Below are positions 369 to 23,904 of a stretch of 64,000 bases of DNA, piece after piece. The stretch comes from Candidatus Hydrothermus pacificus (lineage in GTDB: Bacteria > Hydrothermota > Hydrothermia > Hydrothermales > Hydrothermaceae): contig MTOH01000009.1 in NCBI GenBank assembly GCA_002011615.1, positions 1 through 64,000 on the forward strand, written 5' to 3'. The translations under genes were made by a program, and so were the position numbers. How positions within the stretch are numbered: the stretch's first letter is position 1; every line of letters begins with the position of its first letter. A model generated the notes under the pieces. It saw only the letters and a list, made by a program, of their open reading frames with translations. It was not told the DNA's origin and did not search any database.

Positions 369-380
369 AGTTTACAGATT

Positions 381-4666: not shown

Positions 4667-4699
4667 TTCTGATACTCCATTTTTAATTTTTAACCCTTT

Positions 4700-4728: not shown

Positions 4729-4759
4729 TATATATATAAAATTGTATAATATTTTAAAA

Positions 4760-4789: not shown

Positions 4790-4803
4790 AAAATTTCTTA
4801 AAA

Positions 4804-4817
4804 GGGAGGAAGCGATA
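4804..4817 (+). promoter_or_regulatory. Shine-Dalgarno followed by an AUA candidate start codon
   Basis: GGGAGG (4804-4809) is followed five bases later by ATA at 4815, in frame with the CMD-family gene. The first conventional start codon in that frame is the TTG at 4854, which has no ribosome site at a normal distance. No ATG, GTG or TTG occurs in frame between the two. Confidence 0.45.
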
Positions 4818-5156: not shown

Positions 5157-5173
5157 ACCTCGTTCCAATTTAC

Positions 5174-5761
5174 TCATTTTTTAAAACTAACAGAAATTCC
5201 CTGCGGGTCTGTTTCAAGAAAAAAGGTTGTATATTTGTCTTCTCTTTTAATTTCCTTTAAAAAATTCTTTAATTCTTCCTGATGTGAAAGGACATTGTGA
5301 GCAATCACAACCCCTTTTTCTTTGATTTGTTTTTCAAACTTCAGGAGTGCAGAATAATACCCCTTTTTGTGTATGTCAAGAAATAATAAATCTATTTTTT
5401 CAAACTCGTCTCCTTTTAATTCTTCTGCATCTTTAAGATGAAAATTTATATAATTATTCAAATCAAAACCTTTTAATTCTTCTGCTTCTTTTAAAATTTC
5501 TCTTGATTTTTCAAAAATTACTCTTTCCCTTTCAATAGCATGGATCTTGCATTTCTCTTCTGCTTTTAAAACACCGTCAAGCATCCATAGTACTGAATAG
5601 CCTATTCCTGCTCCAAGTTCGACAATATTGATAAATTTTTTGTCCTTTGCAAAAGTATACGTAAAAAGAGAGAGAAATTTTCCTGTTGATTCAGGAATTG
5701 CAGGAATTCCCATATCAACTGCCTGTTCACGGACCCATTGCATGAATTTTTCAAATTTCAT
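5174..5761 (-). CDS. SAM-dependent O-methyltransferase-like protein
   Basis: A 195-residue class I methyltransferase resembling the O-methyltransferase 3 (catechol/caffeoyl-CoA) family. The SAM-binding glycine loop is IVELGAGIGYSVLWML near residue 48, followed by an acidic strand (IHAIERE) and the LLFLDIHKKGYY motif near 130, which in this family carries the metal/catalytic Asp. The C-terminus (TTFFLETDPQGISVSFK) fits the final family strand. The acceptor cannot be told from sequence. It is divergent from the glycyl radical operon, with about 80 bases between the starts. Confidence 0.75.
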   Translation of the reverse strand: MKFEKFMQWVREQAVDMGIPAIPESTGKFLSLFTYTFAKDKKFINIVELGAGIGYSVLWMLDGVLKAEEKCKIHAIERERVIFEKSREILKEAEELKGFDLNNYINFHLKDAEELKGDEFEKIDLLFLDIHKKGYYSALLKFEKQIKEKGVVIAHNVLSHQEELKNFLKEIKREDKYTTFFLETDPQGISVSFKK

Positions 5762-5785
5762 ATTTAAATTTTAAACTAAAACTTC

Positions 5786-5815
5786 TTGAAAAATAAAACA
5801 TACACTCATTAAAAT
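5786..5815 (+). promoter_or_regulatory. Promoter of the glycyl radical enzyme operon
   Basis: TTGAAA (5786-5791), an 18-base spacer and TAAAAT (5810-5815) precede the GGAGAAGCG ribosome site and the ATG at 5843. Confidence 0.5.
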
Positions 5816-5842
5816 AAGAACTCTATTAAAGGAGAAGCGAGA

Positions 5843-8266: not shown

Positions 8267-9162
8267 TTAAGGGAATAATTTTTGATATAAAAAGGTTTGC
8301 AATACACGATGGTCCTGGAATAAGAACAACAGTTTTTTTTAAGGGCTGTCCTTTAAAATGTATATGGTGTCACAATCCTGAGGGCATTTCACCTTCTAAG
8401 GAAATGATGTATTTTGAATACAAATGTATAAAATGTAAAACCTGTGAAAAAATGTGCCCTTCAAAGGCAATTTATTTTGAAGGTGAAAATCACAGAATAA
8501 GAAGAGAAGTATGTGACATATGTGGGATATGTGACGAGAATTGCCCTTCAGGAGCTTTAAAAATAGTTGGTATTGAGATAACGGTTCAGGAACTTATAAA
8601 AGAAATAGAAAAAGATGTGCTTTTATACGATTCTTCTGGTGGAGGAGTTACCTTTTCAGGTGGAGAGCCTCTCATGCAGCATGAATTTCTTAAAGAAGTT
8701 TTAAAAAGATGTAAAGAAAAAAGAATACACACAGCAGTTGATACTTCAGGTTTTACAAAAAGAAAAGTATTAGAATCCATTATTTCCTATGTTGATTTAT
8801 TTTTATATGATTTTAAAATCTTTGATGATGAAAAACACATAAAATTTACGGGTGTTTCAAACAAAATAATAAAAGAAAATCTGAAATTTTTAATTGAAAA
8901 AAATAAGGATGTAATTGTCAGAATTCCTTTAATACCAGAAATAAATGACGATGAAGAAGTTTATAAAATTCTTGATTTTTTATCCCCTTTTAAAAAATTA
9001 AAGGAAGTTCATATACTTCCCTATCATGATGTAAGGGAAAAATACAAAAGGCTCGGTAAAAACTATTTAATGGAGGAGAAAAGAATTGTTCCTGATAAAA
9101 AAATAAAAGAAATAAGACAGATTTTTGAAAGGGCAAAATTCTTTGCAAAGATAGGAGGTTAA
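8263..9162 (+). CDS. Glycyl radical enzyme activase (radical SAM)
   Basis: A 299-residue radical SAM enzyme that abstracts hydrogen from the radical glycine of the preceding protein. The SAM-cluster cysteines are Cys29, Cys33 and Cys36 (CPLKCIWC), preceded by the family motif HDGPGIRTTVFFKGC. Two ferredoxin-like clusters follow (CIKCKTCEKMCP and CDICGICDENCP), the layout of activases for decarboxylase/dehydratase-type partners, not the short PFL activase. The SFSGGEP-type glycine motif (VTFSGGEPL) is near residue 128. The start is TTG, whose last two bases form the TGA stop of the upstream gene (TTGA overlap), so synthesis is coupled. Confidence 0.92.
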   Translation: MIKGIIFDIKRFAIHDGPGIRTTVFFKGCPLKCIWCHNPEGISPSKEMMYFEYKCIKCKTCEKMCPSKAIYFEGENHRIRREVCDICGICDENCPSGALKIVGIEITVQELIKEIEKDVLLYDSSGGGVTFSGGEPLMQHEFLKEVLKRCKEKRIHTAVDTSGFTKRKVLESIISYVDLFLYDFKIFDDEKHIKFTGVSNKIIKENLKFLIEKNKDVIVRIPLIPEINDDEEVYKILDFLSPFKKLKEVHILPYHDVREKYKRLGKNYLMEEKRIVPDKKIKEIRQIFERAKFFAKIGG

Positions 9163-9163
9163 A

Positions 9164-9517
9164 ATGCACGGAGGAATATGCTATATAGAAATACCCTGCA
9201 GGGATATAAAAAGAGCGAAGGGGTTTTACTCAAAAGTTTTCGGCTGGAGTTTTAAAGATGAAGGAGAAGGTTACTCAATGTTTGAAACTCCTGAAGGAAT
9301 AGGCGGATCCCTTGAACTGAGAAAAGACCAATATCCTCAGGAAAGAGGGATAACCCTTTACATTGAGGTTGATGATATACCAGAGTGTCTGAAAAAAATC
9401 AAAGAATTGGGTGGAGAGATTGTAAAGGGAAAGACAGAGATAAGTCCTGAATTTGGATTTTTTGCAATTTTCAAGGACACAGAAAACAACATTCTGGGAC
9501 TCTGGTCAGGAAAATAA
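9164..9517 (+). CDS. VOC-superfamily (glyoxalase/bleomycin-resistance fold) protein
   Basis: A 117-residue single VOC module with the usual pattern: an N-terminal ICYIEIPCRDIKRAKGFYSKVFGW, a central ITLYIEVDDI strand and a C-terminal GFFAIFKDTENNILGLW strand. These proteins bind a metal and a small substrate as dimers; function varies widely and is not set by sequence here. The ATG follows the activase stop by one base, with AGGAGG as ribosome site. It belongs to the glycyl radical operon and may handle its substrate or product. Confidence 0.8.
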   Translation: MHGGICYIEIPCRDIKRAKGFYSKVFGWSFKDEGEGYSMFETPEGIGGSLELRKDQYPQERGITLYIEVDDIPECLKKIKELGGEIVKGKTEISPEFGFFAIFKDTENNILGLWSGK

Positions 9518-10410
9518 AAACACAAACAAGAGCATATATATACGCAATTTCAGCGGTTTTACTCTGGTCAACCGTAGCATCTGCTTTTAAAATCTCTTTA
9601 AGATACCTTGATTTCCTTGCATTACTTTTAATTTCTTCTTTTATTGCACTCTTTGCACTTTTTATAATTCTTTTATCACAGGGAAAATTAAAACTTTTAA
9701 AAAAACTTGAAAAAAAAGATTACATACGTGCAATATTTCTCGGATTTTTAAATCCCTTTTTGTATTACACAGTACTTTTTAAAGCCTATTCCCTTTTACC
9801 GGCTCAGGAGGCACAGCCATTAAACTATACCTGGGCAATAGTTATAACAATTTTATCCATACCTCTTTTAAAACAGAAGGTAAAAATATGTCATTTCTTA
9901 GGTCTTATAGTGGGTTTTCTGGGAGTTTTAATAATTGCAACCGAGGGAAACATAAAAGAGTTTCACCTTACCGACCCCATAGGTGTTACGCTTGCTTTAT
10001 CAAGTTCTCTTGTATGGGCTTTATACTGGATTTACAATGTAAGAGACAAAAAGGATGAAGTTTTAAAACTTTTTTTAAATTTTTTATTCAGTTTTCCTTT
10101 TGTTCTGATTGCATTTTTGTTTTTTTCTGATAAAAACATTTCCTCCTATAAGGGAATTATCGGGGGTATTTATTCAGGAATTTTTGAGATGGGAATAACA
10201 TTTGTGCTCTGGCTAAAGGCGTTAAAGTATGCAAAAAGGGTATCCCAGGTGAGCATATTAATCTATTTTTCACCCTTTTTATCCCTTTTATTTATAAGAA
10301 TATTTGTGGGAGAAAAAATTTTAATTTCAACAATAACAGGTCTTTTATTAATAATAACAGGAGTTTTGATTCAAAAGTATGATGAGATAAAGGAAATTTT
10401 TAAAAAATAA
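9514..10410 (+). CDS. EamA/DMT-family transporter
   Basis: A drug/metabolite-transporter-type membrane protein with ten predicted hydrophobic segments in two EamA halves (first AISAVLLWSTVASAFKIS, second IGVTLALSSSLVWALYWI). The frame is open and clearly coding well before its first TTG at 9760; starting there would delete the first three helices. Extending upstream to the expected N-terminus (KTQTRAYIYAISAVLLW) reaches ATA at 9514, which overlaps the TAA stop of the VOC gene as ATAA. No ATG, GTG or TTG is available in that stretch; CTG at 9502 is the alternative. The substrate is unknown. The final gene of the operon. Confidence 0.8.
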   Translation: MKTQTRAYIYAISAVLLWSTVASAFKISLRYLDFLALLLISSFIALFALFIILLSQGKLKLLKKLEKKDYIRAIFLGFLNPFLYYTVLFKAYSLLPAQEAQPLNYTWAIVITILSIPLLKQKVKICHFLGLIVGFLGVLIIATEGNIKEFHLTDPIGVTLALSSSLVWALYWIYNVRDKKDEVLKLFLNFLFSFPFVLIAFLFFSDKNISSYKGIIGGIYSGIFEMGITFVLWLKALKYAKRVSQVSILIYFSPFLSLLFIRIFVGEKILISTITGLLLIITGVLIQKYDEIKEIFKK

Positions 10411-10411
10411 T

Positions 10412-10879
10412 TCATTTTTTCTTCAAAATTATGGTTGTATAGATACTGTTATTTGGAATTAAAACTGTATCACCTTTTTCATCCTTTAAAACAGTGTGCC
10501 TTAAATTTATTGATTTGACCTCTCCTTTTTTGCCGGAAACCTCTATAAAATCACCTGTTTTAAAGGGTTCTGTTAATAAGATTAGAATTCCTGCAACAAA
10601 GTTTGCAACAATGTCCTTTAATGCAAAACCAAGGGCAAAACCACCGAGTCCAAGACTTGCTATTAAAGCAGAGGTATTTATTCCGAGTTTTGAAAGTGCG
10701 GTCACCGCACCTATTATTAAAATCGCTATATAAACAGCATCAGAGAGAAATCCTTTTATCTGGTCTGCCTTTCGTGCCTTTTCAAGACTTTTTGCAATTA
10801 TCTTCTTTGTGAAAAATGCGACTCCATAAAAAATTGCGAAGATTAGAAATGCAAAGAGCAAATTCCATAAGAATTTCAT
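10412..10879 (-). CDS. Small-conductance mechanosensitive channel (MscS core)
   Basis: About 155 residues from ATG 10879 (a TTG at 10921 is upstream but less likely). Two N-terminal membrane helices are followed by the pore helix and the beta domain: SALIASLGLGGFALGFALKDIVANFVAGILILL is the diagnostic TM3, then TEPFKTGDFIEVSG and VLIPNNSIYTT. The protein stops just after the beta domain, so the alpha/beta cage of full MscS is missing; short versions are common in small genomes. It releases solutes on hypo-osmotic shock. Convergent with the EamA gene with one base between stops. Confidence 0.85.
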   Translation of the reverse strand: MKFLWNLLFAFLIFAIFYGVAFFTKKIIAKSLEKARKADQIKGFLSDAVYIAILIIGAVTALSKLGINTSALIASLGLGGFALGFALKDIVANFVAGILILLTEPFKTGDFIEVSGKKGEVKSINLRHTVLKDEKGDTVLIPNNSIYTTIILKKK

Positions 10880-10938
10880 AATTTTATTATATCTTAAAAT
10901 ATTTGAAAGACTCAAATACAAAACCTTAAAATAATTTT

Positions 10939-11370
10939 ATGAAAAAATTATCTTTAGTTTTTATTCTTTTTTTAACCTGCACCTATTTAGAGAAAAGGAT
11001 TGCTATAAAGAACTGTAAATTCTACTTCAAAGATGTAAAGATTGAAAGAATTGGCTTGAAAGACATTGATTTAAAAACCTTCATAGAGATTAAAAATCCA
11101 AACTCAATTGAAGTGGTAATGGAAAAATTCACCTATGATTTCTATGTTAACAACATAAATGCCTTTTCAGGAATCTTTTCCCAGAAAACAGAAATAGAAT
11201 CCGGTAAATCAAAGACAATAAATATGCTTGTCAATATTCCCTATGATAAAATCACACAGGCAATTTTATCTTTAATAAAAGAAGATAAAGCGGATTATAA
11301 GATAAAAGGGAGGGTTTATTTCTCAACAATTCTGGGCGAATTTCCCTTTGATGTGGAGATAGAGAAGTAA
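10939..11370 (+). CDS. LEA14-like (WHy domain) lipoprotein
   Basis: A 143-residue exported protein. The N-terminus has a signal sequence ending FILFLTCTY, a plausible lipobox with Cys14. The rest matches the water-stress/hypersensitive-response LEA14 fold: IGLKDIDLKTFIEIKNPNSIEVVM, where the 'K/VxNPN' motif is diagnostic, followed by a beta-rich half ending in a KIKGRVYFSTILGEFPFDVEIEK strand. Bacterial examples sit in the envelope and may protect against desiccation or stress; no enzymatic role is known. It is transcribed divergently from the MscS gene. Confidence 0.7.
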   Translation: MKKLSLVFILFLTCTYLEKRIAIKNCKFYFKDVKIERIGLKDIDLKTFIEIKNPNSIEVVMEKFTYDFYVNNINAFSGIFSQKTEIESGKSKTINMLVNIPYDKITQAILSLIKEDKADYKIKGRVYFSTILGEFPFDVEIEK

Positions 11371-11378
11371 TACATTAT

Positions 11379-11687
11379 TTATTTACGGGATAAAGCCTGA
11401 TGCAGAGGGAGAATAATTTCAAAAATTATGAAAAAACTTATAAGCAAAAACACTATTGGAATAAAAGTAGGACATCTTTTATGTATCTCCCTTTTTCTCA
11501 TTCCATATTCTATTAAGGAGAAAATAAAATAATAAATACTGAAAATGAAATAAGGAATTATATAATTCAGCCAGTATTTTGAAGGAGACTGAAAGAATCC
11601 GAATTTGGAGAGAAATATTGCAAGAAAGGTTAATCCTAACATAATTACATTAGCATGGAGGTTCCTTTTTATTATGAAATTAAACAT
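11379..11687 (-). CDS. Small hypothetical membrane protein
   Basis: A 102-residue protein with about three hydrophobic segments (around residues 14-30, 42-62 and 76-95) and a charged RKREIHKRC linker. No family is recognised. It converges on the LEA14-like gene with 8 bases between stops. Its start overlaps open sequence upstream of the aldolase gene, and no good ribosome site is visible. It is retained because the hydrophobic pattern is regular and no other gene occupies the interval. Confidence 0.5.
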   Translation of the reverse strand: MFNFIIKRNLHANVIMLGLTFLAIFLSKFGFFQSPSKYWLNYIIPYFIFSIYYFIFSLIEYGMRKREIHKRCPTFIPIVFLLISFFIIFEIILPLHQALSRK

Positions 11688-11765
11688 TTATCTAATTATA
11701 AAAGACATCAAATCAACATTTCAACTTTAAAAATTTTGTTTTTTTACCTTAAAATAAATAATATA

Positions 11766-12449
11766 ATGAAAATGATTAAGTTTTCAAAAGTTTCCCAGGA
11801 ACTAAAAAAAATCTCAAATCTTATCCATCAAAAGGGATGGGTGTGCGCGGGTGAGGGGAATTTGTCCGCACGGGTTCATGGTTCATGGAGAATTGTTAAC
11901 AGTGGAGAAATAAAAATTGACTTTGATGTTTCGAAGTTAAATGGAGAATTTATTTTAATGAGTTCAAAAGGTGCAAAAATAAGGGATTTGAGAGAAAATC
12001 CTGAGAAGAATTTGAACTTGTTAAAAATCCAGAGAAATAAAATTTATTTAATCAGAGGTAAAGAGCCTTCAACAGAGTTAAAGGTTCATCTTTTATGCCA
12101 TTGTGAAATTTTAAAAAACGAATTAAAAGAAAACTTTTTATTACATGTTCATCCTGAAAACATAATTGCACTTTCCCATCCTGTAAAAAGTGAAAAAGAA
12201 TTGAACAAGATTTTAAAAAACATTCATTTTGAATTTAAATACACCTTTCCCGAAGGAGTGGGATTTATAAAAGAAAAAGAACCCGGCTCTCTGGAACTTG
12301 CAAAAGAGACAGCAAAAAAGATTAAAAGATATAAGTGTGTAATATGGAAAAAGCACGGGATAATCGCAAGGGGTAAAAGCTTTGAGGAATGTTTTGACAG
12401 GATTGAAATTGTTGAAAAACTTGCAGGAATTTATTTAAAGTTAATTTAA
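11766..12449 (+). CDS. Class II aldolase/adducin-family protein
   Basis: About 227 residues, starting at ATG 11766 (or 11772). The open frame reaches back to 11655, but that part is a non-family hydrophobic extension. Substrate-loop motif CAGEGNLSAR is near residue 27. The zinc-binding HVHPE is near 120 and the third metal His lies in KKHGIIARG near 197, so the active site seems complete. This family holds fuculose-, rhamnulose- and methylthioribulose-phosphate aldolases/dehydratases. Which sugar phosphate is used cannot be said. It stands as a single gene, divergent from the small membrane protein. Confidence 0.82.
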   Translation: MKMIKFSKVSQELKKISNLIHQKGWVCAGEGNLSARVHGSWRIVNSGEIKIDFDVSKLNGEFILMSSKGAKIRDLRENPEKNLNLLKIQRNKIYLIRGKEPSTELKVHLLCHCEILKNELKENFLLHVHPENIIALSHPVKSEKELNKILKNIHFEFKYTFPEGVGFIKEKEPGSLELAKETAKKIKRYKCVIWKKHGIIARGKSFEECFDRIEIVEKLAGIYLKLI

Positions 12450-12500
12450 ATTGTCATCAAACATTTTGAAAATAATAGAAAGTGTAAAGACCTAAAACAT

Positions 12501-14921
12501 CTATTCTATGCTGATGAGGTCCTTTAAATGGAGCGTAAGTCCTTCCACCCAGAAAATCGGTTTGTTATTATTTAAATAAAGGATTGAGGGAAATTTTTTG
12601 ATTCTCCATTTTTTAAGAAGTTTTTCTTCTACTGAATAAACCTTTCCCTTTTTAATTCCTGATTTTTCCAGAAATTCACTTATCTCTTTTCCGTTCTCAC
12701 CAAAGAAAAATATTTTTCCTTTGAATTTATTTAGTGCATCCTTTGCATTGATTAAAGTGCTTTTTGATTCCTCCGATTTTAAATCCAGAAATATCAAAAG
12801 AACCTTTCCTCTTTCAATTTCTTCTTCTTTGATACCTAGACTTTCAATCCCTTTAAAGCCTCTATATTTTCTTATAACAAGCTGTCCTGCTTCTAAATCC
12901 TTATATGGAATACTCACATCAAAGGATATTTTCAATGTATCTTTTTTTCTTAAATCTACTTTTTTAATTCTCACAAAAGCATCTCCTTTTGCGTTCCTGA
13001 ATCCAGAGAGAAGATAATAGATGTCTTTATCAAGTTCTATTATTTGCAAAGTATCCCTGTTTATAATATCGGGTTCTTTTCTTTCAGGATATTCTTTAAA
13101 TGAGAGAATACTGTAATTTTCAAAGTATTTAAAATCCTTTGAAATATTTTTACCATCCCTTAAAAACTTTACCATTAAAAGAGATTTTTCTAAAAGATTT
13201 TCTTTTTCAAAAGTTAATTCTTTCCAGTCATTATCCCAGTATAAAACTCCTTTATAATTCCATTTAATTTTTGAAGGTATTCCGAGTGTTCTTAAAATCC
13301 CACATATTAAAATATATCTTTCAATGTTTCTTGCTTTTCTGATTTCACAGGTGTAAACCGGGTTTAAAAGGGGTTTAAAAAATTCCCTTTGTTTTTCTTC
13401 CTTTATATTATTTTTAACCCATTCAAATACTTTTTTGGCAGTCTCTGATGTATTCTGGCTGATAAATTTTTGAAATTTATCAAATAAATAAACTCTATAA
13501 AATCCGAATTCCTCAAATAATATTCTCTCTGGGATTAAATAATCTCTTATAATACTGTCCGGTGAATTTTTTGAGAGTTCTATTGATTTTTTTATAAGTT
13601 TAATTTCTTTTCTTAAATTAAGTGTATCCATCATAACCAGGTCCTTTGGATGGATATTTTCAAAAAATACCAGAAAATCTTCTTTTTCTCTATCAATGAG
13701 ACTCTCATAGAATTTTAGAATTTTATCCTTATTTCCTTTTGAATTTTGAAGAATCTTTAAAAGCCTTTTGTCCTTTATTTTTGAAGAACTTTTAAAAGAG
13801 ATTTCTTCAAAGTGTTTTTTCTGCAAAGACTTGAGTGAATCCATATTCGGTTTATATAAAGGTTTTTGAGTATCCTGAACAGGCTCTTTTACATAAATCC
13901 AGAGGGAGGTATCGTTTAATTCTTTTTTATCTATTTTAATGATTACTGTGTCAAAATCACTTTTTGGTCTTAAAATCTTGTATCCAGACAAAGAATCCTT
14001 AGATACATAAACAAAGTAATCTGTTTTACCGATTGTGTATAATCTTTCGCCTCTTTTAAGGGTGTCCACAAATAAAGGAACAAAACCAGAGTAGTTGTAA
14101 ATACAGAAGGAAACTATTGCATCTTTGTCTGTTTTAACATAGACCCTGTAAGGTTCTGTATAATTCCGGGTGACATTCAAAATTGTGTAATTTTTACCTT
14201 TTTTGTGAATTAATTCCCCTTTTTGTTTTACCTCTCCAAAAACAGGTGATAGAATCAGCCCTGCTCTTTTAACAGAGTTTCTGAACCATGCAAAATTTAG
14301 GTCAGTGGGTTCTGCACCTCCTATAAAATGCCATTTCCCATCAGCCCATACCTCACACCATGCATGATTGCTCTCTGTAAAGGGCCACCAGGGTGTATAA
14401 GCTTCCCTTACAGGGATGCATACGGTTCTGAGTGCTTTCATAAATAAAATTACCATCTCCTCACATCTTCCAAATCCCCTTTTAATCGTTGCTGTTGCAT
14501 TCTGGTCCCATCTTACGGTTGGTTTATATTCCATTTTTGTGAAACACCATTCGTTTATTTTTAAAATCGCGGATTTCATATCTTTTAAGTCTTTAATCAA
14601 GTTGTAAAGCGTATCCTTATAGATCCATGTAAAATTTTCAAGGGGCTCCTGAGATACTCTTGGGGGGAGAATATAATGATAGAGAAGATAATCATTTATT
14701 TTATCTTTCCATGGAACCCTTTCAAGATTTTCCCTTATTGCCTTTAAGTGCAAAATGAAATTTTCATAATTAAAATTCAAGATATCAGAATGGGAAGAGT
14801 ACTTTAAGACAAATTCCGCCCATTCCCTTAAATTTTCTTTTTCAGCGAGTTTTAAAAGTTCTTTTTTCTTGTGGTTTATGTTAAAATCAATAAAAATTAT
14901 AAATATGAGAAAAAATTTCAT
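12501..14921 (-). CDS. Exported transglutaminase-like protein with thioredoxin-like C-terminus
   Basis: An 806-residue protein with an N-terminal signal sequence. Residues 110-215 form a transglutaminase-like (papain fold) domain with a complete triad: Cys153 (GFGRCEEM), His186 (SNHAWCEVW) and Asp207 (EPTDLNF). Around residues 500-590 a second region (ERYILICGILRTLGIPSKI) looks like a degenerate copy of the same fold. The last 130 residues look like a thioredoxin fold (VLLIFLDLKSEESK, then KKFPSILYLNNNKP) but without a CxxC pair. Probably a periplasmic or surface peptidase or protein-modifying enzyme. Related multi-domain transglutaminase proteins occur in Bacteroidota, but the substrate is unknown. 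Confidence 0.75.
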   Translation of the reverse strand: MKFFLIFIIFIDFNINHKKKELLKLAEKENLREWAEFVLKYSSHSDILNFNYENFILHLKAIRENLERVPWKDKINDYLLYHYILPPRVSQEPLENFTWIYKDTLYNLIKDLKDMKSAILKINEWCFTKMEYKPTVRWDQNATATIKRGFGRCEEMVILFMKALRTVCIPVREAYTPWWPFTESNHAWCEVWADGKWHFIGGAEPTDLNFAWFRNSVKRAGLILSPVFGEVKQKGELIHKKGKNYTILNVTRNYTEPYRVYVKTDKDAIVSFCIYNYSGFVPLFVDTLKRGERLYTIGKTDYFVYVSKDSLSGYKILRPKSDFDTVIIKIDKKELNDTSLWIYVKEPVQDTQKPLYKPNMDSLKSLQKKHFEEISFKSSSKIKDKRLLKILQNSKGNKDKILKFYESLIDREKEDFLVFFENIHPKDLVMMDTLNLRKEIKLIKKSIELSKNSPDSIIRDYLIPERILFEEFGFYRVYLFDKFQKFISQNTSETAKKVFEWVKNNIKEEKQREFFKPLLNPVYTCEIRKARNIERYILICGILRTLGIPSKIKWNYKGVLYWDNDWKELTFEKENLLEKSLLMVKFLRDGKNISKDFKYFENYSILSFKEYPERKEPDIINRDTLQIIELDKDIYYLLSGFRNAKGDAFVRIKKVDLRKKDTLKISFDVSIPYKDLEAGQLVIRKYRGFKGIESLGIKEEEIERGKVLLIFLDLKSEESKSTLINAKDALNKFKGKIFFFGENGKEISEFLEKSGIKKGKVYSVEEKLLKKWRIKKFPSILYLNNNKPIFWVEGLTLHLKDLISIE

Positions 14922-15011
14922 ACCACCTTAACTTTTGTGTATGAAGTTTTAAATTATGTTTAAATTTTAATTATAGGCTTTTCAAATATTTACAATCAAA
15001 TTTACATAAAC

Positions 15012-16544
15012 TTATCTTTTTCTCAGAAACTCCCATATTATAAAAAATCCCAGAATTACAAGAATTACATCAATTGAGAATAAAAGGTAGTTTTTTGCCT
15101 TTAAAAGTTCGGGCATTTTTAATATGAGTGCTGAAAGGGTTATTAAAAACATTATTATTGCAGGAATAAGTGTTATTAGATGGTTTTTCTTTTTATGAAT
15201 AAGCCAAGCGGTTCCTGTTAAAAGAGCAATGGCTGCAACCAGTTGATTTGAAGCACCGAATAAAGGCCATAAAGTTTGCCATGTTCCTGATATTGCAAAG
15301 TATCCACCCACTAAAATTATAATAAGAGTTGTAATCCACTTATTTTTTAATCCTGTTATTTCCTGGGTTAAAAGTCTTGTAATTCTTGTTGCTGTATCAA
15401 GGGTTGTTAAAATAAAGGCATTCAAAATTACAAGGGCTATAAAGGCGGAGTATTTCCCAAGAAAAAATACGGTTTTTGAAAATCCAAGGGAAAACACTTC
15501 AAGGGGATTTTTACCCTGAGGGATTTTTGAAAGACCGAAGGCAACAACAAATAACGCAGATGCTGCAAGAATTCCCTCAAGGAGCATGCCACCATAACCT
15601 ATTGTCTTTGTATCCTTTTCATTTGTTATCTGTTTTGACGATGTTCCGCTTGCCACAAGGGAATGAAATCCTGAGATTGCACCGCATGCAACCGTTATAA
15701 ACATTACAGGGAATAAAAATCCTGCCTTTGATGAAAAATTAAATAATTTTGCATTTTCTAAAGGAACGGGTTTTAAAAATATCCCTGCCGCCATTACACC
15801 TATTCCGAAAAACAGGAGAAAACTTGAAAGATAGTCTCTTGGTTGTAGAAGTATGTTTACAGGCAGGATTGATGCAAAGTAGGAATATATAAGGAGCACC
15901 ACCATCCATATTAAGAATGCATTTTTAAAATTTATTTTTATTGGAAACTTTTCTCCTAAGATGAGAAGAATTGCAAGCAGAATTATTCCAATTATTGTTG
16001 AGGCTAAAATTCCTGTATTTGTTCTGTAAATTAAAAAACCTGTAAAAAGGGCAATGAATATAAGACCTAATGAGGGCAAAACAATTTCAGGCATTGAGAC
16101 AAATGTTTTTGCACAGAGGGATGCAAAAATAGCAATCACTATTATTAAGGCAAACCACAGAAATATTAAAAATGTAAATCCCGCCCTTTTTGAAATGTAT
16201 TTTTCTGCAACATCTCCTATGCTTTTACCTTCTTTCCTTATTGAGACAAACATTGATACAAAATCATGAACACCTCCCATGAATATTGAGCCGAGTATAA
16301 TCCATATTATAACATCTATCCATCCCCAGAATATGTAAGCAAATACAGGACCCACTATAGGACCTGCCCCTGCAATTGATGAAAAATGGTGTCCGAATAA
16401 AACAAGGGGATTTTTTGCAGGCACATAGTCAACACCATCGAACTTTGAAAGTGCAGGTGTTTTCCTATTTTCATCAATTCCAAGAATTTTTGATATAAAA
16501 TTTCCGTAAAATATATATCCCAGAAGAATAAGGATTAAAATCAC
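15012..16544 (-). CDS. cstA: CstA-family peptide/pyruvate transporter
   Basis: A 510-residue polytopic membrane protein of the carbon-starvation protein A family. Diagnostic stretches are the N-terminal NPLVLFGHHFSSIAGAGPIVGP, VACGAISGFHSLVASGTSSKQ near residue 285 and the TLDTATRITR segment near 375. CstA-type proteins import peptides or pyruvate under nutrient limitation. At 510 residues it is the shorter form (Escherichia coli CstA is about 700). The start is GTG at 16544; no good ribosome site is seen. It stands alone, divergent from the natA operon. Confidence 0.9.
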   Translation of the reverse strand: MILILILLGYIFYGNFISKILGIDENRKTPALSKFDGVDYVPAKNPLVLFGHHFSSIAGAGPIVGPVFAYIFWGWIDVIIWIILGSIFMGGVHDFVSMFVSIRKEGKSIGDVAEKYISKRAGFTFLIFLWFALIIVIAIFASLCAKTFVSMPEIVLPSLGLIFIALFTGFLIYRTNTGILASTIIGIILLAILLILGEKFPIKINFKNAFLIWMVVLLIYSYFASILPVNILLQPRDYLSSFLLFFGIGVMAAGIFLKPVPLENAKLFNFSSKAGFLFPVMFITVACGAISGFHSLVASGTSSKQITNEKDTKTIGYGGMLLEGILAASALFVVAFGLSKIPQGKNPLEVFSLGFSKTVFFLGKYSAFIALVILNAFILTTLDTATRITRLLTQEITGLKNKWITTLIIILVGGYFAISGTWQTLWPLFGASNQLVAAIALLTGTAWLIHKKKNHLITLIPAIIMFLITLSALILKMPELLKAKNYLLFSIDVILVILGFFIIWEFLRKR

Positions 16545-16632
16545 TATAAATAAGGATTGTGCTCATTTTGAATTTTTAATATAAGGCAACTATTTCAAAA
16601 AATTCAAGAATTCCTTTAAAATAAAATACTTT

Positions 16633-17370
16633 ATGGAAAGCAAAATAGCCCTGAAGGAAATTAAAAAATATTTTTCTTCAAAAAAAGGCACTGTAAAGGC
16701 GGTTGATGGAATATCCTTTGATGTTAAAGAGGGTGAGATTTTTGCCCTTTTGGGCCCGAATGGTGCTGGAAAGACAACCACCTTGAGGATTCTTGCAACG
16801 GTTTTAAAACCCGATTCAGGAACAGCCATTATAAACGGATATGACATTCTTAAAGAGCCTGAGAAGGTGAGGAAATCCATAGGCTTTTTGCCTGGAGATT
16901 CAGGACTCTATCACAGATTAACCCCTTCGGAGTTTGTTGATATATTTGCTGAACTTTATGGAATTCCCAAGGAAGTGGTTAAAAAAAGGAAAAAGGATGT
17001 TTTTGAAGCCCTTGATATTGAAAGATATTCAAAGACGATAATTGATAAGCTTTCAACAGGGACAAGGCAAAAGGTTCTACTTTCAAACCTTCTTGTGTGT
17101 GACCCCCCTGTTTTAATTCTTGATGAGCCCGCACAGGGTCTTGATGTTCTGGCTGCAAAGACCGTTGAAGAATACCTTTTAAAATTAAAAAAAGAGGGGA
17201 AAACCATTTTGATTTCAACCCATATAATGGAACAGGCAGAATATCTTGCTGACAGGATAGGCATAATAAATGAGGGAAAGATAGTTGAAATAGCAACAAT
17301 TGAAAAGATGAGGGAAGCAACGGGTAAAAAGACATTGAGGGAGATGTTTTTAAGTCTTGTTGAAAAATGA
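16633..17370 (+). CDS. natA: NatA-type ABC transporter ATP-binding subunit
   Basis: A 245-residue ABC ATPase. Walker A is GPNGAGKTT near residue 44, the signature is LSTGTRQK near 138, Walker B is PVLILDEPAQGLD near 158 and the switch His is in ISTHIMEQ near 193. The GTRQKV signature variant and the C-terminal region resemble the NatA/CcmA type that drives ABC-2 exporters for Na+ or drugs. It is the first gene of a tightly packed four-gene operon and overlaps the permease start by ATGA. Confidence 0.88.
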   Translation: MESKIALKEIKKYFSSKKGTVKAVDGISFDVKEGEIFALLGPNGAGKTTTLRILATVLKPDSGTAIINGYDILKEPEKVRKSIGFLPGDSGLYHRLTPSEFVDIFAELYGIPKEVVKKRKKDVFEALDIERYSKTIIDKLSTGTRQKVLLSNLLVCDPPVLILDEPAQGLDVLAAKTVEEYLLKLKKEGKTILISTHIMEQAEYLADRIGIINEGKIVEIATIEKMREATGKKTLREMFLSLVEK

Positions 17371-18557
17371 AAGCCCTTTTTAAAAAGGAATTTCTTGATG
17401 TTATAAGGGATAAAAGAACCATAATAAGTATGATAATAATACCTGTTTTCGGGATTCCCTTGCTCATGATAATAATGGGTGGTATAATGAGAAAATCTGT
17501 TCAGGAATTGGCTGAAAAAAGATACAAAATAGGTGTTTATGAGAAGACCCAATTTAAAAAATTGATGGAAATCCTTGAGAGAGCCAATTTTAAAATTATA
17601 AGAACTTCAAGTCCAGAATCTTTACTTTATGAAAAGGAAATAGATGCTGGAATTGTTGTTGACAAAAAAAATGAAAAGTTTAAAATTCAGTTAATTTATG
17701 CTGTTGGAAGAGAGACTTCCGAGTTTGCGAAGAAAAAACTTGAAGATGTTTTAAATTCCCTTAAAGAAAAGATTTTTAAAGAAAAACTCAAAGAAAAGGG
17801 TGTTAAACCCGAAGAAATTGTTCCCTTTATTTTATCTGAAAAAAGTATTCAGGTAGGAAAAGGGGTTTTTGGATTTATATTCGGAACATTTCTTGGATAC
17901 ATAATCGTAATTTTGATGGTAACATCTGCAATGTATCCTGCAATAGACCTTATAACAGGAGAGAAGGAAAGGAGAACCCTTGAAATTCTGCTTTCATCTC
18001 CAGCAGGAGTTAACAGGGTAATAATTTCAAAAATACTTGTCGTTACGGTTGTTTCCTTTATCGCAGCAGTGCTAACCCTGATTTCCCTTTCAATAACCCT
18101 TTTAAAAGGTGGTGAATTACTGATGGGTTTAAAAAGTAGTGAATTACTTATGGGAAAAGAAGGGGAACAGTTTTCTTTTTTAAAAATGGTGAATTTAAAA
18201 GATATTTTTATCCTATTGACCCTTATCATTCCCTTTTCATTTTTAATTTCTTCTGTTGAAATAGCGATAACATCCTATGCAAGAAGTTATAAGGAAGCCC
18301 AGAGCCTTTTAACTCCCCTTAGCTTTGCTGTTATAATCCCTGCCTTTTACTCTTTTGTTCCTGCTTTAAGTTTTTCAGACTATCACTTTTTAATTCCTGT
18401 TTTAAACATTGCGGTCACAATAAAAAAACTCCTTCAGGGAGAATTTGTTTTAAAGGAATACCTTATAACACTTTTTTCAAATCTCCTCTACATGATTTTC
18501 GCATTCATTTACACTCTCAGAAATTTTAAAAGAGAAAAAATAATTTTCAGGGTTTAA
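17367..18557 (+). CDS. natB: NatB-like ABC-2 permease
   Basis: A 396-residue ABC-2 type permease: one N-terminal membrane helix, a large extracytoplasmic domain of about 140 residues, then five or six helices. The amphipathic motif LITGEKERRTLEILLSSP near residue 195 is characteristic of NatB and related exporters. With the preceding ATPase it should form an exporter, in the type case for Na+. Here the next gene is NikR, so metal or another cation is worth considering. Internal near-repeat: GGELLMGLKSSELLMG near residue 250. Confidence 0.85.
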   Translation: MKALFKKEFLDVIRDKRTIISMIIIPVFGIPLLMIIMGGIMRKSVQELAEKRYKIGVYEKTQFKKLMEILERANFKIIRTSSPESLLYEKEIDAGIVVDKKNEKFKIQLIYAVGRETSEFAKKKLEDVLNSLKEKIFKEKLKEKGVKPEEIVPFILSEKSIQVGKGVFGFIFGTFLGYIIVILMVTSAMYPAIDLITGEKERRTLEILLSSPAGVNRVIISKILVVTVVSFIAAVLTLISLSITLLKGGELLMGLKSSELLMGKEGEQFSFLKMVNLKDIFILLTLIIPFSFLISSVEIAITSYARSYKEAQSLLTPLSFAVIIPAFYSFVPALSFSDYHFLIPVLNIAVTIKKLLQGEFVLKEYLITLFSNLLYMIFAFIYTLRNFKREKIIFRV

Positions 18558-19936: not shown

Positions 19937-20929
19937 TTAATTTCCTCCGCTTAGTGCCTGAATTGTGTTTTCAAGGAGGGAATTTGCATAGTCAAAGTTG
20001 TGAACTCCGTGTCCTTCTTTTACAAACAGGTAATTCCAGAGACCTCCTGCAAGATTTCTCGGCCAGTTACCGGCGACCGCATGATCTGTTGAATCCATTA
20101 TTCCAGCATTTATAAGTATTGTTCTTAAAGAATCAAGATTGGCTTCAAGAATTGAATCTGCGGTTTCAAATTCAGAAACAGGGTCAGAATGACATTCTTC
20201 ACATCCTGCAGTCAGGAGTTCTGTCTGACCATGGTATTCATAAAACATGTTCATTGTATGACCGCCTGCCTGTGAACCGTAAGGTTCTGCCATATGACAC
20301 TCTGGACATCCTCCTGTGATGGCTGAGTAATGAGGAGTGCTGGGATAATTTCCTGAAAATTCCTCAAAACCTCCCTGACCCGAAATTAGGTTTGCAACAG
20401 GGCTGTGATGAGGTCCCCAGTAGGGTCCCCATATATAAACTGTATCCTGACCAGAAGGTATTACATCCGATGCCCTTGACTGGTGACAGTTGGCACACAG
20501 ATTTCCTGCGCCCATGTCAAATGTTCCACCCTCTCTTAAATTAACTGTGGCAGTTGTTTTTAACTGAAAATCTTCCCATGTGTAGGTTTCGTGAATATTA
20601 TGACAGGTTCTGCAGTTGGGTGGTGTGGGGTTTACAATTGATTGGGTTGTGTCACCACCTTCAACAAGAACTATGAATCCTTCATGGGTGTGACATCCTG
20701 CGCAGGGGAAATAATCCCTTTCATAGTTTCCACCGAGATAATGAGTGGAGTTCTGATACTGAATTTCTCTTGCAAGAATTTCAGTGTTGTCGGAATGACA
20801 GGTACTGCACAATTCTGTTCCAGGAGGACCTTGAGGTCCCTCAGGGCCCTTACAGGATATACCCAGAAGAAAAACAGCTGATAAAATTATCGCTACACCC
20901 CATACAGGTCCTTTCTTTATCCTTTTCAT
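19937..20929 (-). CDS. Six-heme c-type cytochrome lipoprotein
   Basis: A 330-residue exported lipoprotein: signal LSAVFLLGISC with lipobox Cys26, then a collagen-like GPEGPQGPPG linker. Six CxxCH heme sites follow (CSTCH, CAGCH, CRTCH, CANCH, CPECH, CEECH), spread over residues 40-250, with many extra histidines as possible distal ligands. The C-terminal 80 residues are heme-free and helical. Probably an outer-membrane or surface electron carrier. It is transcribed divergently from a barrel/cytochrome operon with a 140-base shared promoter region and very likely works with it. It converges on the K+ channel gene with only seven bases between stops. Confidence 0.9.
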   Translation of the reverse strand: MKRIKKGPVWGVAIILSAVFLLGISCKGPEGPQGPPGTELCSTCHSDNTEILAREIQYQNSTHYLGGNYERDYFPCAGCHTHEGFIVLVEGGDTTQSIVNPTPPNCRTCHNIHETYTWEDFQLKTTATVNLREGGTFDMGAGNLCANCHQSRASDVIPSGQDTVYIWGPYWGPHHSPVANLISGQGGFEEFSGNYPSTPHYSAITGGCPECHMAEPYGSQAGGHTMNMFYEYHGQTELLTAGCEECHSDPVSEFETADSILEANLDSLRTILINAGIMDSTDHAVAGNWPRNLAGGLWNYLFVKEGHGVHNFDYANSLLENTIQALSGGN

Positions 20930-21009
20930 CTTTCACCTCCCATTTTTAAAGTGATATGATTATTAAGTATTATTTATATAAAAAGCAAATTAAATATTAA
21001 TTAACTGCA

Positions 21010-21038
21010 TTGAAATTTAAAAACGAAACCTGTATTAT
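21010..21038 (+). promoter_or_regulatory. Promoter of the porin-cytochrome operon
   Basis: TTGAAA (21010-21015), a 17-base spacer and TATTAT (21033-21038) predict a start near 21045. AGGAGGA follows and the ATG is at 21073. Confidence 0.6.
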
Positions 21039-21072
21039 TATAAACTTATTTATAAATATAGGAGGAATTTTT

Positions 21073-22236
21073 ATGAGAAAATTGTTTTTCATATTTATGA
21101 TTGCGGGTTTTCTCTATTCCGCCAGTTTTACTGGAAGTCTTGATTTTAGATACTATCCGAGAGCAACATCAGATACAACGGTTTTTCACTCCTACTTTCA
21201 CAGAACAAATCTGGGTTTCTCTCAGATTTTCGGGGACAGGTTATCCCTTTTTATATCCTTCTATGTCCCCTCAACTCAGAATGGAGAAAATCTGAGAGAG
21301 ACTGAATTCAGATTTTTTTATGGTTATACTGAGTTTAATCTCTTAAATGGTCTTTTTTTCAGGGCAGGCAGACAGTTTACCACCTTTGGCTTTGGAAACA
21401 TATATGATGGCTTGAGTGTCTACTACAAAAACCATAAATTTAATTTTGAAATTTACGGTGGGTTTAAATCTCCCTATGACCAGTCCTTTGAGATTCAGGA
21501 TTCTTCCTATGTTCTGGGTGCCAAATTCTTTTTAAGACCCTTTAAAAACTCGAGGGGAGTTATAAGTTACCACAGAGAATGGATGAAATCAGAAAGAGAC
21601 TTTGAGGGAATTTACTTCAGCAATTACTTCAACCTGATGGGATTCCATAATCATATAAAACTCTGTTACGACCTCATCTCTCAGAATATACACAGATTAT
21701 GTGTCGGAACCGCAAGAAACTTTGAAAGGATATTCTTTTCCATAAATTTCCTTGATTATAAGCCCGTTTTCTCAGAAGGATTTTTGCTTTCTGATTTTGA
21801 AATTGAAAGGAAAAGGTTTTTAACAGCAGGCATTGACATAAATCTCTGGAGAAATTTGTGGTTTGAAACAGGCGCAAGTTTTAACTTCATATCAGACACT
21901 TCTTCTGCAAAGGAATACTCCCTTGGTATCTCTTTAAAACCATGGATTTCAGCAGGTCTGAGATTTGGAAATGGTTATCAACTTGACGAAAACTTTTACT
22001 ATGTGAGTTTAAATATTCCATTTAAAAATATTCTGACCCTTTACGGAAGCACAAGTTATCATACCTATGAGGTCTATGAAACAGAGGAAGCATTTTCCTG
22101 GAGAGTGGGTTTAAAAACAGGTTATTTTAAGAATCTAAGGGGACAGTTTGAAATTCAGGAATTTGTGAATGAGGAATACAACTACGATTACAGATTTCTA
22201 TTTTCTTTAACTTACAAATTCAGAGGGAGGCTATAA
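21073..22236 (+). CDS. Outer-membrane beta-barrel (porin-like) protein of a cytochrome operon
   Basis: A 387-residue protein starting at ATG 21073, eight bases after AGGAGGA; an upstream TTG at 21010 lies inside the promoter. A signal peptide (MRKLFFIFMIAGFLYSA) is followed by about 370 residues of alternating aromatic/polar strands ending in a terminal aromatic strand (LFSLTYKFRGRL), typical of outer-membrane barrels with perhaps 16 to 18 strands. No specific family is recognised, and it is much shorter than MtrB (about 700). It is followed two bases later by an eleven-heme cytochrome, an arrangement like porin-cytochrome electron conduits. Confidence 0.78.
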   Translation: MRKLFFIFMIAGFLYSASFTGSLDFRYYPRATSDTTVFHSYFHRTNLGFSQIFGDRLSLFISFYVPSTQNGENLRETEFRFFYGYTEFNLLNGLFFRAGRQFTTFGFGNIYDGLSVYYKNHKFNFEIYGGFKSPYDQSFEIQDSSYVLGAKFFLRPFKNSRGVISYHREWMKSERDFEGIYFSNYFNLMGFHNHIKLCYDLISQNIHRLCVGTARNFERIFFSINFLDYKPVFSEGFLLSDFEIERKRFLTAGIDINLWRNLWFETGASFNFISDTSSAKEYSLGISLKPWISAGLRFGNGYQLDENFYYVSLNIPFKNILTLYGSTSYHTYEVYETEEAFSWRVGLKTGYFKNLRGQFEIQEFVNEEYNYDYRFLFSLTYKFRGRL

Positions 22237-22237
22237 A

Positions 22238-23056
22238 ATGAAAATACTTTTTATCTTGCCCTTTATATTCGGAGTTTTGGATAAGTTTTCCCATAAGATT
22301 CATATGGAAAACGAAGTTGAATGCAATGTGTGTCATGCAAAGGCAGAAAAAAGCGGGCATCTTAAAGATATTTTAATTCCTGAAAAAAATGTATGTCTTG
22401 ACTGTCATGAAAAAACATATGAGTTCAAAATTCCGAAGGGCTTAAATATAAAAGACTTCTCCCACAAAAATCATCTCAAAAGAGTTAAAACCTGCAATAA
22501 CTGTCATTTAAGGGATAAAGAGATTGTTATGCCTTCAATGAATACCTGTTATAACTGTCATAATAGAAAAGTTGCGGTTCAGGAATGTGATATTTGCCAT
22601 TCAGGAAACGAAAGTTTTTTCCAGAAGTTTCATGAAAAGGGATTTAAAAACTCCCATGGAATTACTGCAAAGGACGATGTTGAGGAATGCTATATGTGTC
22701 ATTCCTTTTCAGAAGAATACGAATTATTATCTGCAATCGTCCCCTCCTGTTCAAAGTGTCACTTTGAAGAAAATGTAACCTTTGATGTTCATCCAGAAAA
22801 CTTTTCATATACCCATCCTGTTTCCTTTAAAAAAAGAGAATCCGATTGCCTTTCCTGTCATGAAAACTATTCCTCCTGCATAACATGCCATAAGAATGAA
22901 TTTGTTTATCCTGCAGTTCACAATAATCCTGAATGGGCAGAGATAAAGGAAGGTGGTCTTCATAAAAAGTATTTTGAAAGGGACCCTGAATACTGTGCCA
23001 CTTGTCATCTTGAAAAAGAACCTGTTTGCACAGGCTGTCACGGAGGTGAAAAATGA
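22238..23056 (+). CDS. Eleven-heme c-type cytochrome
   Basis: A 272-residue exported cytochrome with eleven CxxCH motifs, in order CNVCH, CLDCH, CNNCH, CYNCH, CDICH, CYMCH, CSKCH, CLSCH, CITCH, CATCH and CTGCH: one heme per 25 residues. Repeated FSHKxH segments near residues 18 and 75 are the c3/c7-type pattern in which a preceding His ligates a heme. A short signal (MKILFILPFIFGVL) has no lipobox, so it should be periplasmic or held inside the barrel. Density and length are like decaheme MtrA-type proteins. It sits two bases after the barrel gene and overlaps the next gene by ATGA. Confidence 0.92.
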   Translation: MKILFILPFIFGVLDKFSHKIHMENEVECNVCHAKAEKSGHLKDILIPEKNVCLDCHEKTYEFKIPKGLNIKDFSHKNHLKRVKTCNNCHLRDKEIVMPSMNTCYNCHNRKVAVQECDICHSGNESFFQKFHEKGFKNSHGITAKDDVEECYMCHSFSEEYELLSAIVPSCSKCHFEENVTFDVHPENFSYTHPVSFKKRESDCLSCHENYSSCITCHKNEFVYPAVHNNPEWAEIKEGGLHKKYFERDPEYCATCHLEKEPVCTGCHGGEK

Positions 23057-23274
23057 AGAAAATTCTTATATTGATTACAATTTTTGCATTTTTCGCAGGC
23101 TGTGCAGAAAAAAGCACAGAGGTTGAAAAAAGAGTTCATCCAGATGAATGGATTTTTGAACATGATGATAAAGTTGAAAATCTTGGAAGTCCTGAAAGCT
23201 GTTTTTCATGCCACTTGTATGATGAGGATAAAGGCGAAATTCCTGCCTGTTTGAGCTGTCATAGTTTGAAATAA
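23053..23274 (+). CDS. Small two-heme cytochrome lipoprotein
   Basis: A 73-residue lipoprotein: signal ILITIFAFFAGC with lipobox Cys17, a charged linker, then two heme motifs (CFSCH and CLSCH) in the last 25 residues. It is translationally coupled to the eleven-heme gene. The small size suits an electron-transfer subunit docked on the conduit. No named family is recognised beyond multiheme c-type. Confidence 0.85.
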   Translation: MKKILILITIFAFFAGCAEKSTEVEKRVHPDEWIFEHDDKVENLGSPESCFSCHLYDEDKGEIPACLSCHSLK

Positions 23275-23289
23275 AAGAGAGGTGTTACA

Positions 23290-23904
23290 ATGGTGGAGAT
23301 TTTAATTGTACTCATGGCCTATACAAACCTCACAGGTTATGCAGGTTCACCTGCGAGTAACGGATACTGTGCTGCATCATGTCATGGCAATGGAACATTC
23401 CAGCTCAATGTAAACGGGTTTCCACAGACCTATACACCCGGTCAGTTCTATACGATAACTGTTTCTGCGGGGAGCGGAACCATAAAAAATTTCAACCTCT
23501 GTATCCTTGATGGTTCAAATAGTTCTGCAGGGACTCTTCAACCAGGTTCAAATACAGAGACCTATTCCCACTCTGGTGAAGGAACAGGTATACACGGGAG
23601 TAGCCCAAACCAGTCTTCCTATGATTTTGTATGGATTGCTCCTGTACAGGGAACAGGCACAGTGACCCTTTATGTTGCTGCTCATCAGGGTAATAAAAAC
23701 GGCCCGAATCAGAACTTGACTCTTACATCCCAGGAGGGTTTAAGTGTTGAAGAGAGTTTTTCTCCAGTAAAAGAAAGCCCAGAATATGGGATAAAAATTT
23801 ACAGTGTTACAGGAAAACTGATTTCCAGAAAAGAGTTTAAAAACAAGAAAGGGATTTATTTTATAAAATCAGGAGGTAAATTCAGGAAAGTGATTAAATA
23901 TTAA
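23290..23904 (+). CDS. Surface protein with Reelin-like/choice-of-anchor V domain and sorting tail
   Basis: A 204-residue secreted protein. After a short hydrophobic start the motif TGYAGSPASNGYCAASCHGNG fits the GxTGAPG...CxxCH opening of choice-of-anchor V (Reelin-like) domains; here the spacing is CxxxCH, an atypical heme-site pattern. A beta-rich domain to about residue 150 ends in TVTLYVAAHQGNKNG, also family-typical. The last 50 residues (IKIYSVTGKLISRKEF, then KGIYFIKSGGKFRKVIKY) match type IX-like sorting domains. It is the last gene of the cytochrome operon, 15 bases downstream, so it is probably displayed on the surface beside the conduit. Confidence 0.72.
   Translation: MVEILIVLMAYTNLTGYAGSPASNGYCAASCHGNGTFQLNVNGFPQTYTPGQFYTITVSAGSGTIKNFNLCILDGSNSSAGTLQPGSNTETYSHSGEGTGIHGSSPNQSSYDFVWIAPVQGTGTVTLYVAAHQGNKNGPNQNLTLTSQEGLSVEESFSPVKESPEYGIKIYSVTGKLISRKEFKNKKGIYFIKSGGKFRKVIKY

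What the first reader, a model, noticed from the sequence alone, without database searches (positions are those of the whole stretch)
19937..23904. Candidate porin-cytochrome electron conduit with 19 canonical heme sites
A six-heme lipoprotein is divergent from an operon of outer-membrane barrel (387 aa), eleven-heme cytochrome, two-heme lipoprotein and a surface protein with a sorting tail. Seen directly: 6+11+2 CxxCH motifs, lipoboxes, ATGA coupling, one shared 140-base promoter region. Established: barrel plus multiheme cytochrome is the layout of MtrCAB and porin-cytochrome conduits. Inference: this is a compact extracellular electron-transfer system. The barrel is about half the size of MtrB and matches no conduit family I recognise, and a type IX-like sorted protein as partner would be new.
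Basis: partly seen in the sequence, partly recalled or inferred. Interest (0 to 1): 0.8.

Follow-up and report, generated by a model that had tools for sequence, protein, structure and literature searches.

The report
WOR-3 porin-cytochrome electron conduit
This uncultured WOR-3 bacterium carries a small outer-membrane pore protein paired with heme-packed cytochromes, which very probably carries electrons out of the cell; the kind of machine is known (Geobacter/Ignavibacterium-type porin-cytochrome conduits), but I found no report of it in this phylum.

Summary
In detail: 6+11+2 CxxCH motifs, a 387-aa beta-barrel, tight gene coupling and a 143-bp divergent intergenic region, plus one CX3CH in the surface protein. 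The module is conserved. All 6 of 147 WOR-3 genomes with the undecaheme relative encode a barrel directly upstream. In Ignavibacteria, 90 of 149 genomes carry a 14-heme relative, and 29 of 30 loci inspected have a homologous barrel directly upstream; the exception ends at a contig edge. The WOR-3 barrel is homologous to those barrels by profile comparison (a control barrel is not) and is modelled with about 20 strands. The hexaheme lipoprotein has homologs beside the same conduit in two WOR-3 relatives and in an Ignavibacteriae genome, where NrfD, Rieske, cytochrome b and multiheme genes adjoin; their homologs lie in a >80-heme island elsewhere in the window's genome. So this is a compact, divergent member of the known porin-cytochrome (Pcc) kind (Shi et al. 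2014; Ignavibacterium IALB_1838/1839 is the likely counterpart), not a new conduit class. The type IX-sorted protein is a choice-of-anchor V protein that does not track the conduit. No paper searched reports extracellular electron transfer in WOR-3. Function is inferred, not shown.

The parts
19937..20929 (-). Hexaheme c-type cytochrome lipoprotein (330 aa; lipobox-like Cys then a GPEGPQGPPGT linker); proposed cell-surface terminal cytochrome
   Evidence: 6 CxxCH; 63-64% identical homologs beside the conduit in G001 and G003, the only other WOR-3 genomes with it among 147 at E<=1e-15; 34% identical homolog in the Ignavibacteriae conduit cluster L019
20930..21072 (.). 143-bp divergent intergenic region; probable promoters for the hexaheme gene (-) and the barrel operon (+)
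   Evidence: read directly; sigma-70-like TTGAAA-17-TATTAT at 21010-21038, but such matches are at chance frequency in the region
21073..22236 (+). Outer-membrane beta-barrel, about 20 strands (387 aa); proposed sheath of the conduit, Pcc-porin-like
   Evidence: AlphaFold2 model pLDDT 69, pTM 0.63, 20 strands; PDB matches only to unrelated porins at TM about 0.5; hhalign to Ignavibacterial, Bacteroidetes and Kryptonia conduit barrels 99.2% and 99.8% with 31 barrels; unrelated barrel control 0.2%
22238..23056 (+). Undecaheme cytochrome (272 aa, Cytochrome_C7/c3 type), N-terminal signal, no lipobox; proposed transmembrane/periplasmic wire through the barrel
   Evidence: 11 CxxCH, 11 further His; Pfam PF14522 8e-15; relatives in WOR-3, Ignavibacteriae, Bacteroidetes, Myxococcota and Bdellovibrionales next to a barrel
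23053..23274 (+). Small diheme lipoprotein (73 aa), ATGA-coupled; proposed outer-membrane electron exit or relay
   Evidence: 2 CxxCH and lipobox FAGC; homologs in the same position in G001 and G003, positional equivalents in G014 and Bdellovibrionales L030
23290..23904 (+). Choice-of-anchor V / Reeler-type surface protein with a T9SS-like C-terminal tail and one CX3CH; in the operon by position, not a conserved part of the conduit
   Evidence: NF041895 62 bits over cut-off 42; TIGR04183 tail 11 bits, below cut-off 23; phylum distribution does not follow the conduit

Best explanation
The locus encodes a trans-outer-membrane electron conduit of the porin-cytochrome (Pcc) kind, in a compact WOR-3 form. 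Proposed path: menaquinol is oxidised in the inner membrane by a NrfD/Rieske/cytochrome b/multiheme complex encoded elsewhere in the same genome. Electrons pass through periplasmic and membrane-anchored multiheme cytochromes to the undecaheme protein, which runs through the roughly 20-strand barrel. They leave by the diheme and hexaheme lipoproteins on the outer face to an extracellular acceptor (mineral, humic substance or partner cell). Shown by computation: gene content, homology, constant pairing of barrel and cytochrome, and existence of the inner-membrane set. Inferred: insertion of the cytochrome in the barrel, surface location of the lipoproteins, direction of flow, and the acceptor.
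For: Barrel directly upstream of the undecaheme homolog in 6 of 6 WOR-3 loci and in 29 of 30 Ignavibacteria loci, the other cut by a contig end; also in Bacteroidetes, Thermokryptus, Myxococcota and Bdellovibrionales. Barrel homology across these groups with a negative control. Hexaheme homologs sit beside the same conduit in G001, G003 and Ignavibacteriae L019. In L019 the NrfD, Rieske, cytochrome b and 11-heme genes adjoin the conduit, and the window genome has homologs of all four (54%, 36%, 27%, 30% identity) in one island of more than 80 hemes on contig C4. In G014 an 18-heme NapC-like cytochrome (47% identical to the island's) and a 9-heme homolog lie beside the conduit. About 20 strands fits the 18-22 predicted for Pcc porins, and 11 hemes the 5-14 reported for their periplasmic cytochromes (PMC4245776).
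Against: No direct sequence test against Geobacter OmbB/OmaB or against IALB_1838/1839 themselves was possible. The barrel model has only moderate confidence and the cytochrome model failed (pLDDT 41), so the fit of cytochrome in barrel is untested; ideal geometry gives a 36-A backbone diameter against 47 A for 26 strands. The conduit is rare in WOR-3 (6 of 147). No expression or phenotype data exist for this organism.
Confidence: 0.85

Rival explanations
1. The barrel and cytochromes form an electron-uptake conduit (electrons enter from Fe(II), a cathode or a syntrophic partner) rather than an export one.
For: Pcc and Mto systems can in principle work either way; nothing in the sequence fixes direction. 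A QmoC-like gene lies beside the multiheme island.
Against: The inner-membrane homologs adjoining the conduit in L019 (NrfD, Rieske, cytochrome b) are of quinol-oxidising type by established knowledge; dsrA was not found in the genome.
Confidence: 0.2
2. The multiheme proteins belong to a soluble or periplasmic reductase (nitrite, sulfite, hydroxylamine type) and the barrel is an ordinary porin for its substrate.
For: Weak sub-threshold resemblance of single stretches to NrfH, HmcA and NapC-type profiles; PDB hits of low significance to hydroxylamine oxidoreductase.
Against: No catalytic family (NrfA, Otr, HAO, DsrAB) is hit above threshold by any conduit protein; the barrel and cytochrome stay paired across phyla; fold matches are to porins of other families at TM about 0.5 only.
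Confidence: 0.06
3. The surface protein with the T9SS-like tail is a true new part of the conduit, with its CX3CH binding a heme as the outermost site.
For: It starts about 15 bases after the diheme gene on the same strand, has CAASCH, and the genome has a SprA-type T9SS translocon homolog.
Against: It is absent from the conduit loci of the relatives; of 16 WOR-3 genomes with a relative only G000 and G009 have the conduit, and in G009 it lies on another contig; its tail is below the curated cut-off.
Confidence: 0.12

Closest known systems
Porin-cytochrome (Pcc) conduits of Ignavibacterium album (IALB_1839 porin, IALB_1838 14-heme cytochrome) and Geobacter (OmbB-OmaB-OmcB), Shi et al. 2014, PMC4245776
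   Same: Barrel of 18-22 strands directly beside a multiheme cytochrome (5-14 hemes) plus outer-membrane lipoprotein cytochromes; Ignavibacterial relatives found here have about 400 aa and 14 hemes, like IALB_1838, with a homologous barrel upstream
   Different: WOR-3 cytochrome is shorter (272 aa, 11 hemes); barrel 359-396 aa in the WOR-3 class; small diheme lipoprotein in place of a 5-11-heme one; surface hexaheme on the opposite strand; WOR-3 cytochromes (4 of 5) form a separate clade (100/99)
MtrCAB/MtoAB/PioAB conduits
   Same: Barrel sheath plus multiheme cytochrome plus surface cytochrome; works alike
   Different: No MtrB/PioB (TIGR03509) match and only a 17-bit DmsE/MtrA match against a 192-bit cut-off; barrel half the size; MtrB absent from the 50 best PDB fold matches
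PCC3/PCC4 and ExtHIJKL-type conduits (PMC5566968, PMC6148476)
   Same: Porin plus multiheme gene cluster
   Different: PCC3 has far larger cytochromes and a conserved inner-membrane protein; no Ext family reached its cut-off in the proteins scanned
Choice-of-anchor V / Reeler family (NF041895, PF02014)
   Same: Surface protein 23290-23904 passes both cut-offs
   Different: Common family, unrelated to the conduit's distribution

Membership tests
Porin-cytochrome (Pcc) conduit | Outer-membrane barrel of about 18-22 strands | tested here: met
   Model shows 20 strands, pLDDT 69, pTM 0.63
Porin-cytochrome (Pcc) conduit | Barrel gene always adjacent to a periplasmic multiheme cytochrome of 5-14 hemes | tested here: met
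   1-bp gap in the window; 6 of 6 WOR-3 loci and 29 of 30 Ignavibacteria loci
Porin-cytochrome (Pcc) conduit | Barrel homologous to named Pcc porins | tested here: inconclusive
Porin-cytochrome (Pcc) conduit | Outer-membrane lipoprotein cytochrome in the cluster | tested here: met
   Hexaheme and diheme with lipobox-like signals; location itself not shown
[quoted passage not shown]
   needs biochemistry
MtrCAB/MtoAB | MtrB/PioB-family barrel (TIGR03509) and decaheme MtrA/DmsE (TIGR03508) | tested here: not met
   No barrel family hit; TIGR03508 17 bits against cut-off 192
T9SS cargo | Por secretion C-terminal domain above cut-off | tested here: inconclusive
   TIGR04183 11.1 bits (cut-off 23), PF18962 13.5 bits (cut-off 27); SprA homolog present in the genome
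Choice-of-anchor V (NF041895) | Domain profile above curated cut-off | tested here: met
   62 bits, cut-off 42
Soluble multiheme reductase (Nrf, Otr, HAO) | Catalytic family match | tested here: not met
   No such family above cut-off

The most novel reading that the evidence does not exclude
The WOR-3 clade is a distinct minimal conduit type: a roughly 20-strand barrel holding an exceptionally heme-dense cytochrome (about 23-25 residues per heme), with a 73-aa diheme lipoprotein as outer cap, interchangeable hexa- or octaheme surface cytochromes, and in this genome a T9SS-delivered CX3CH protein as outermost contact.
Probability: 0.12. Interest if true: 0.65.

Novelty: new member of a known kind. 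Interest (0 to 1): 0.42.

Why it matters
It gives a candidate quinone-to-surface electron path in a poorly known phylum: the text of a 2025 survey of 181 WOR-3 genomes (PMC12542636) has no mention of extracellular electron transfer or hemes. It also points to a barrel family, not covered by Pfam or NCBIfam, by which such conduits can be found across Ignavibacteria, Kryptonia, Bacteroidetes, Myxococcota, Bdellovibrionota and WOR-3, and to a small, heme-dense version that could be attractive for structural work.

Tried and rejected
Pfam and NCBIfam give no family above cut-off for the barrel or its relatives. Phmmer of the barrel against PDB gives only a chance hit. Plain protein search with the barrel alone finds only one true relative in the phylum, G055 (the G128 hit lies in a serpin-like frame); the others are too divergent and were found through the cytochrome. 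The undecaheme structure prediction failed (pLDDT 41) and was not used. The idea that the diheme lipoprotein is the trimmed N-terminus of the 5-11-heme lipoproteins that follow the 14-heme gene in Ignavibacteria was tested by profile: it does not exceed control two-heme segments, so only position and architecture agree. The T9SS-sorted partner idea was rejected on distribution. Sulfate reduction as context: no dsrA in the genome. Promoter and terminator matches are at chance level. A search for papers on Melioribacter respiration gave nothing on the conduit.

Full report
Observation. The five genes are present as described, with 6, 11 and 2 CxxCH motifs, lipobox-like signals on the hexaheme and diheme proteins, ATGA overlap between the undecaheme and diheme genes, a 1-bp gap between barrel and undecaheme, and a 143-bp divergent region. 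The motif counts far exceed shuffled proteins. The undecaheme protein has exactly 11 non-motif histidines, at least nine of them invariant in the WOR-3 relatives, as expected for bis-histidine hemes. The surface protein adds one CX3CH.

Family matches. Pfam places the undecaheme in Cytochrome_C7/Cytochrom_c3_2 and the hexaheme in Cytochrome_C7 with an MtrC/MtrF domain II/IV match. The barrel matches nothing. The surface protein is a choice-of-anchor V/Reeler protein whose T9SS tail is below cut-off.

Conservation in the phylum. The relatives are candidate division WOR-3: G014 and G009 correspond to named WOR-3 records L017 and L018. Undecaheme relatives occur in 6 of 147 genomes of the phylum, and in every one the gene directly upstream is a heme-free barrel of 359-407 aa, though sequence identity to the window barrel is only 16-22%. 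A diheme lipoprotein follows in the window, G001, G003 and G014, not in G009; G055 ends at the contig edge. The upstream cytochrome varies: a hexaheme (with an octaheme further up) in G001 and G003, octahemes in G014 and G009. The hexaheme occurs in only three genomes at E<=1e-15, always beside the conduit, and there at 63-64% identity, much more conserved than barrel or undecaheme. In G001 and G003 it runs in the same direction as the barrel; in the window it is divergent.

Beyond the phylum. A scan of 85,462 genomes with the cytochrome alignment found relatives in Ignavibacteriae, Bacteroidetes, Thermokryptus, Myxococcota, a deltaproteobacterium and Bdellovibrionales. In those whose gene neighbourhood I read and whose sequence reached far enough (L019, L020, L022, L023, L025, L026, L030) a barrel gene lies directly upstream. 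In the class of L019 (Ignavibacteriae), 90 of 149 genomes have the 14-heme relative; of 30 loci examined, 29 have a barrel matching the barrel profile (E<1e-85) directly upstream and one ends at a contig edge. Profile-profile comparison joins the WOR-3 barrels with those of Ignavibacteriae/Bacteroidetes/Kryptonia (99.2%, E 1.6e-19; 99.8% with 31 barrels) and Myxococcota (96.7%), while an unrelated barrel scores 0.2% and decoys give no hit. In the cytochrome tree four of five WOR-3 sequences form a clade (100/99) apart from the Ignavibacterial and Myxococcal groups; G055 is on a long branch of unsure place.

Structure. The barrel model (pLDDT 69, pTM 0.63) has 20 strands and resembles 18-strand porins such as AlgE and the OccK family only at TM about 0.5. 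Ideal geometry gives about 36 A backbone diameter for 20 strands against 47 A for 26. The cytochrome is unusually heme-dense (about 23-25 residues per heme). Whether it fits in the barrel is not shown; its own model failed.

Route to the quinone pool. In Ignavibacteriae L019 the genes upstream of the conduit are NrfD-like, Rieske, cytochrome b and an 11-heme protein. The window's genome has homologs of all four (54, 36, 27 and 30% identity) on contig C4 within an island that also holds two 18-heme NapC-type proteins, three 9-heme proteins, a 16-heme/b561 fusion and QmoC-like genes. In G014 the homologous 18-heme and 9-heme genes stand beside the conduit itself. This supports a chain from quinol to the surface; direction of flow is inference.

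Comparison with the known. Shi et al. 2014 (PMC4245776) define Pcc as an 18-22-strand porin, smaller than MtrB, next to a 5-14-heme periplasmic cytochrome, usually with an outer-membrane cytochrome that does not co-evolve with the pair. They list I. album IALB_1839 with the 14-heme, 400-aa IALB_1838. The Ignavibacterial loci found here have just that size and heme number. Later work calls Ignavibacterial clusters Geobacter- or OmbB-like (PMC6137239; PMC7399161). The window system is therefore best filed as a divergent, compact Pcc member. A direct alignment to those named proteins could not be made. The held literature has no report that I found of extracellular electron transfer in WOR-3; the 2025 phylum survey text has no occurrence of the terms sought (PMC12542636). 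Most subscription papers are not held, so absence of a report is only as good as that library.

The T9SS partner. The genome has a SprA homolog, so type IX sorting is plausible, but the surface protein's relatives occur in 16 WOR-3 genomes of which only two have the conduit, and in G009 it is elsewhere in the genome. It is a neighbour in the operon, not a conserved part.

Noticed in passing
L042 (G000:C4:82001-102000), about 3849-18140 in locus coordinates: Multiheme island with more than 80 CxxCH: two 18-heme NapC-like, three 9-heme, one 16-heme fused to cytochrome b561, b561 subunits, cytochrome b, Rieske, NrfD, 4Fe-4S protein and a tetraheme, next to QmoC-like and HdrA/QmoA-like genes.
   Followed up: partly
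G000:C6:82796-87970 (same contig as the window, about 19-24 kb past its end): SprA (T9SS translocon) homolog in a long frame (1810 aa), with one piece carrying an internal TGA; T9SS-like tails also seen on other proteins of the genome.
   Followed up: no
L045 (G000:C1:330001-342452), 7659-11158: Molybdopterin-type oxidoreductase (822 aa) with 4Fe-4S subunit, a diheme protein and molybdenum cofactor genes nearby; possible respiratory reductase (read from sequence, not profiled).
   Followed up: no
L015 (G055), 3-5678: In a distant WOR-3 genome the conduit barrel follows directly on heterodisulfide-reductase-like and FrhB-like genes, hinting at a different electron source.
   Followed up: no
L030 (Bdellovibrionales), 4638-8323: A similar cluster (9-heme, 411-aa barrel, 7-heme, diheme lipoprotein, 4-heme) in a Bdellovibrionales genome.
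   Followed up: partly
L052-L081 (Ignavibacteria): The lipoprotein after the 14-heme gene has a recurrent N-terminal signature (CSxLK...HxxGW...NFHG...CxxCH...GGT...SCxxCH), and 5-11 hemes in total.
   Followed up: partly
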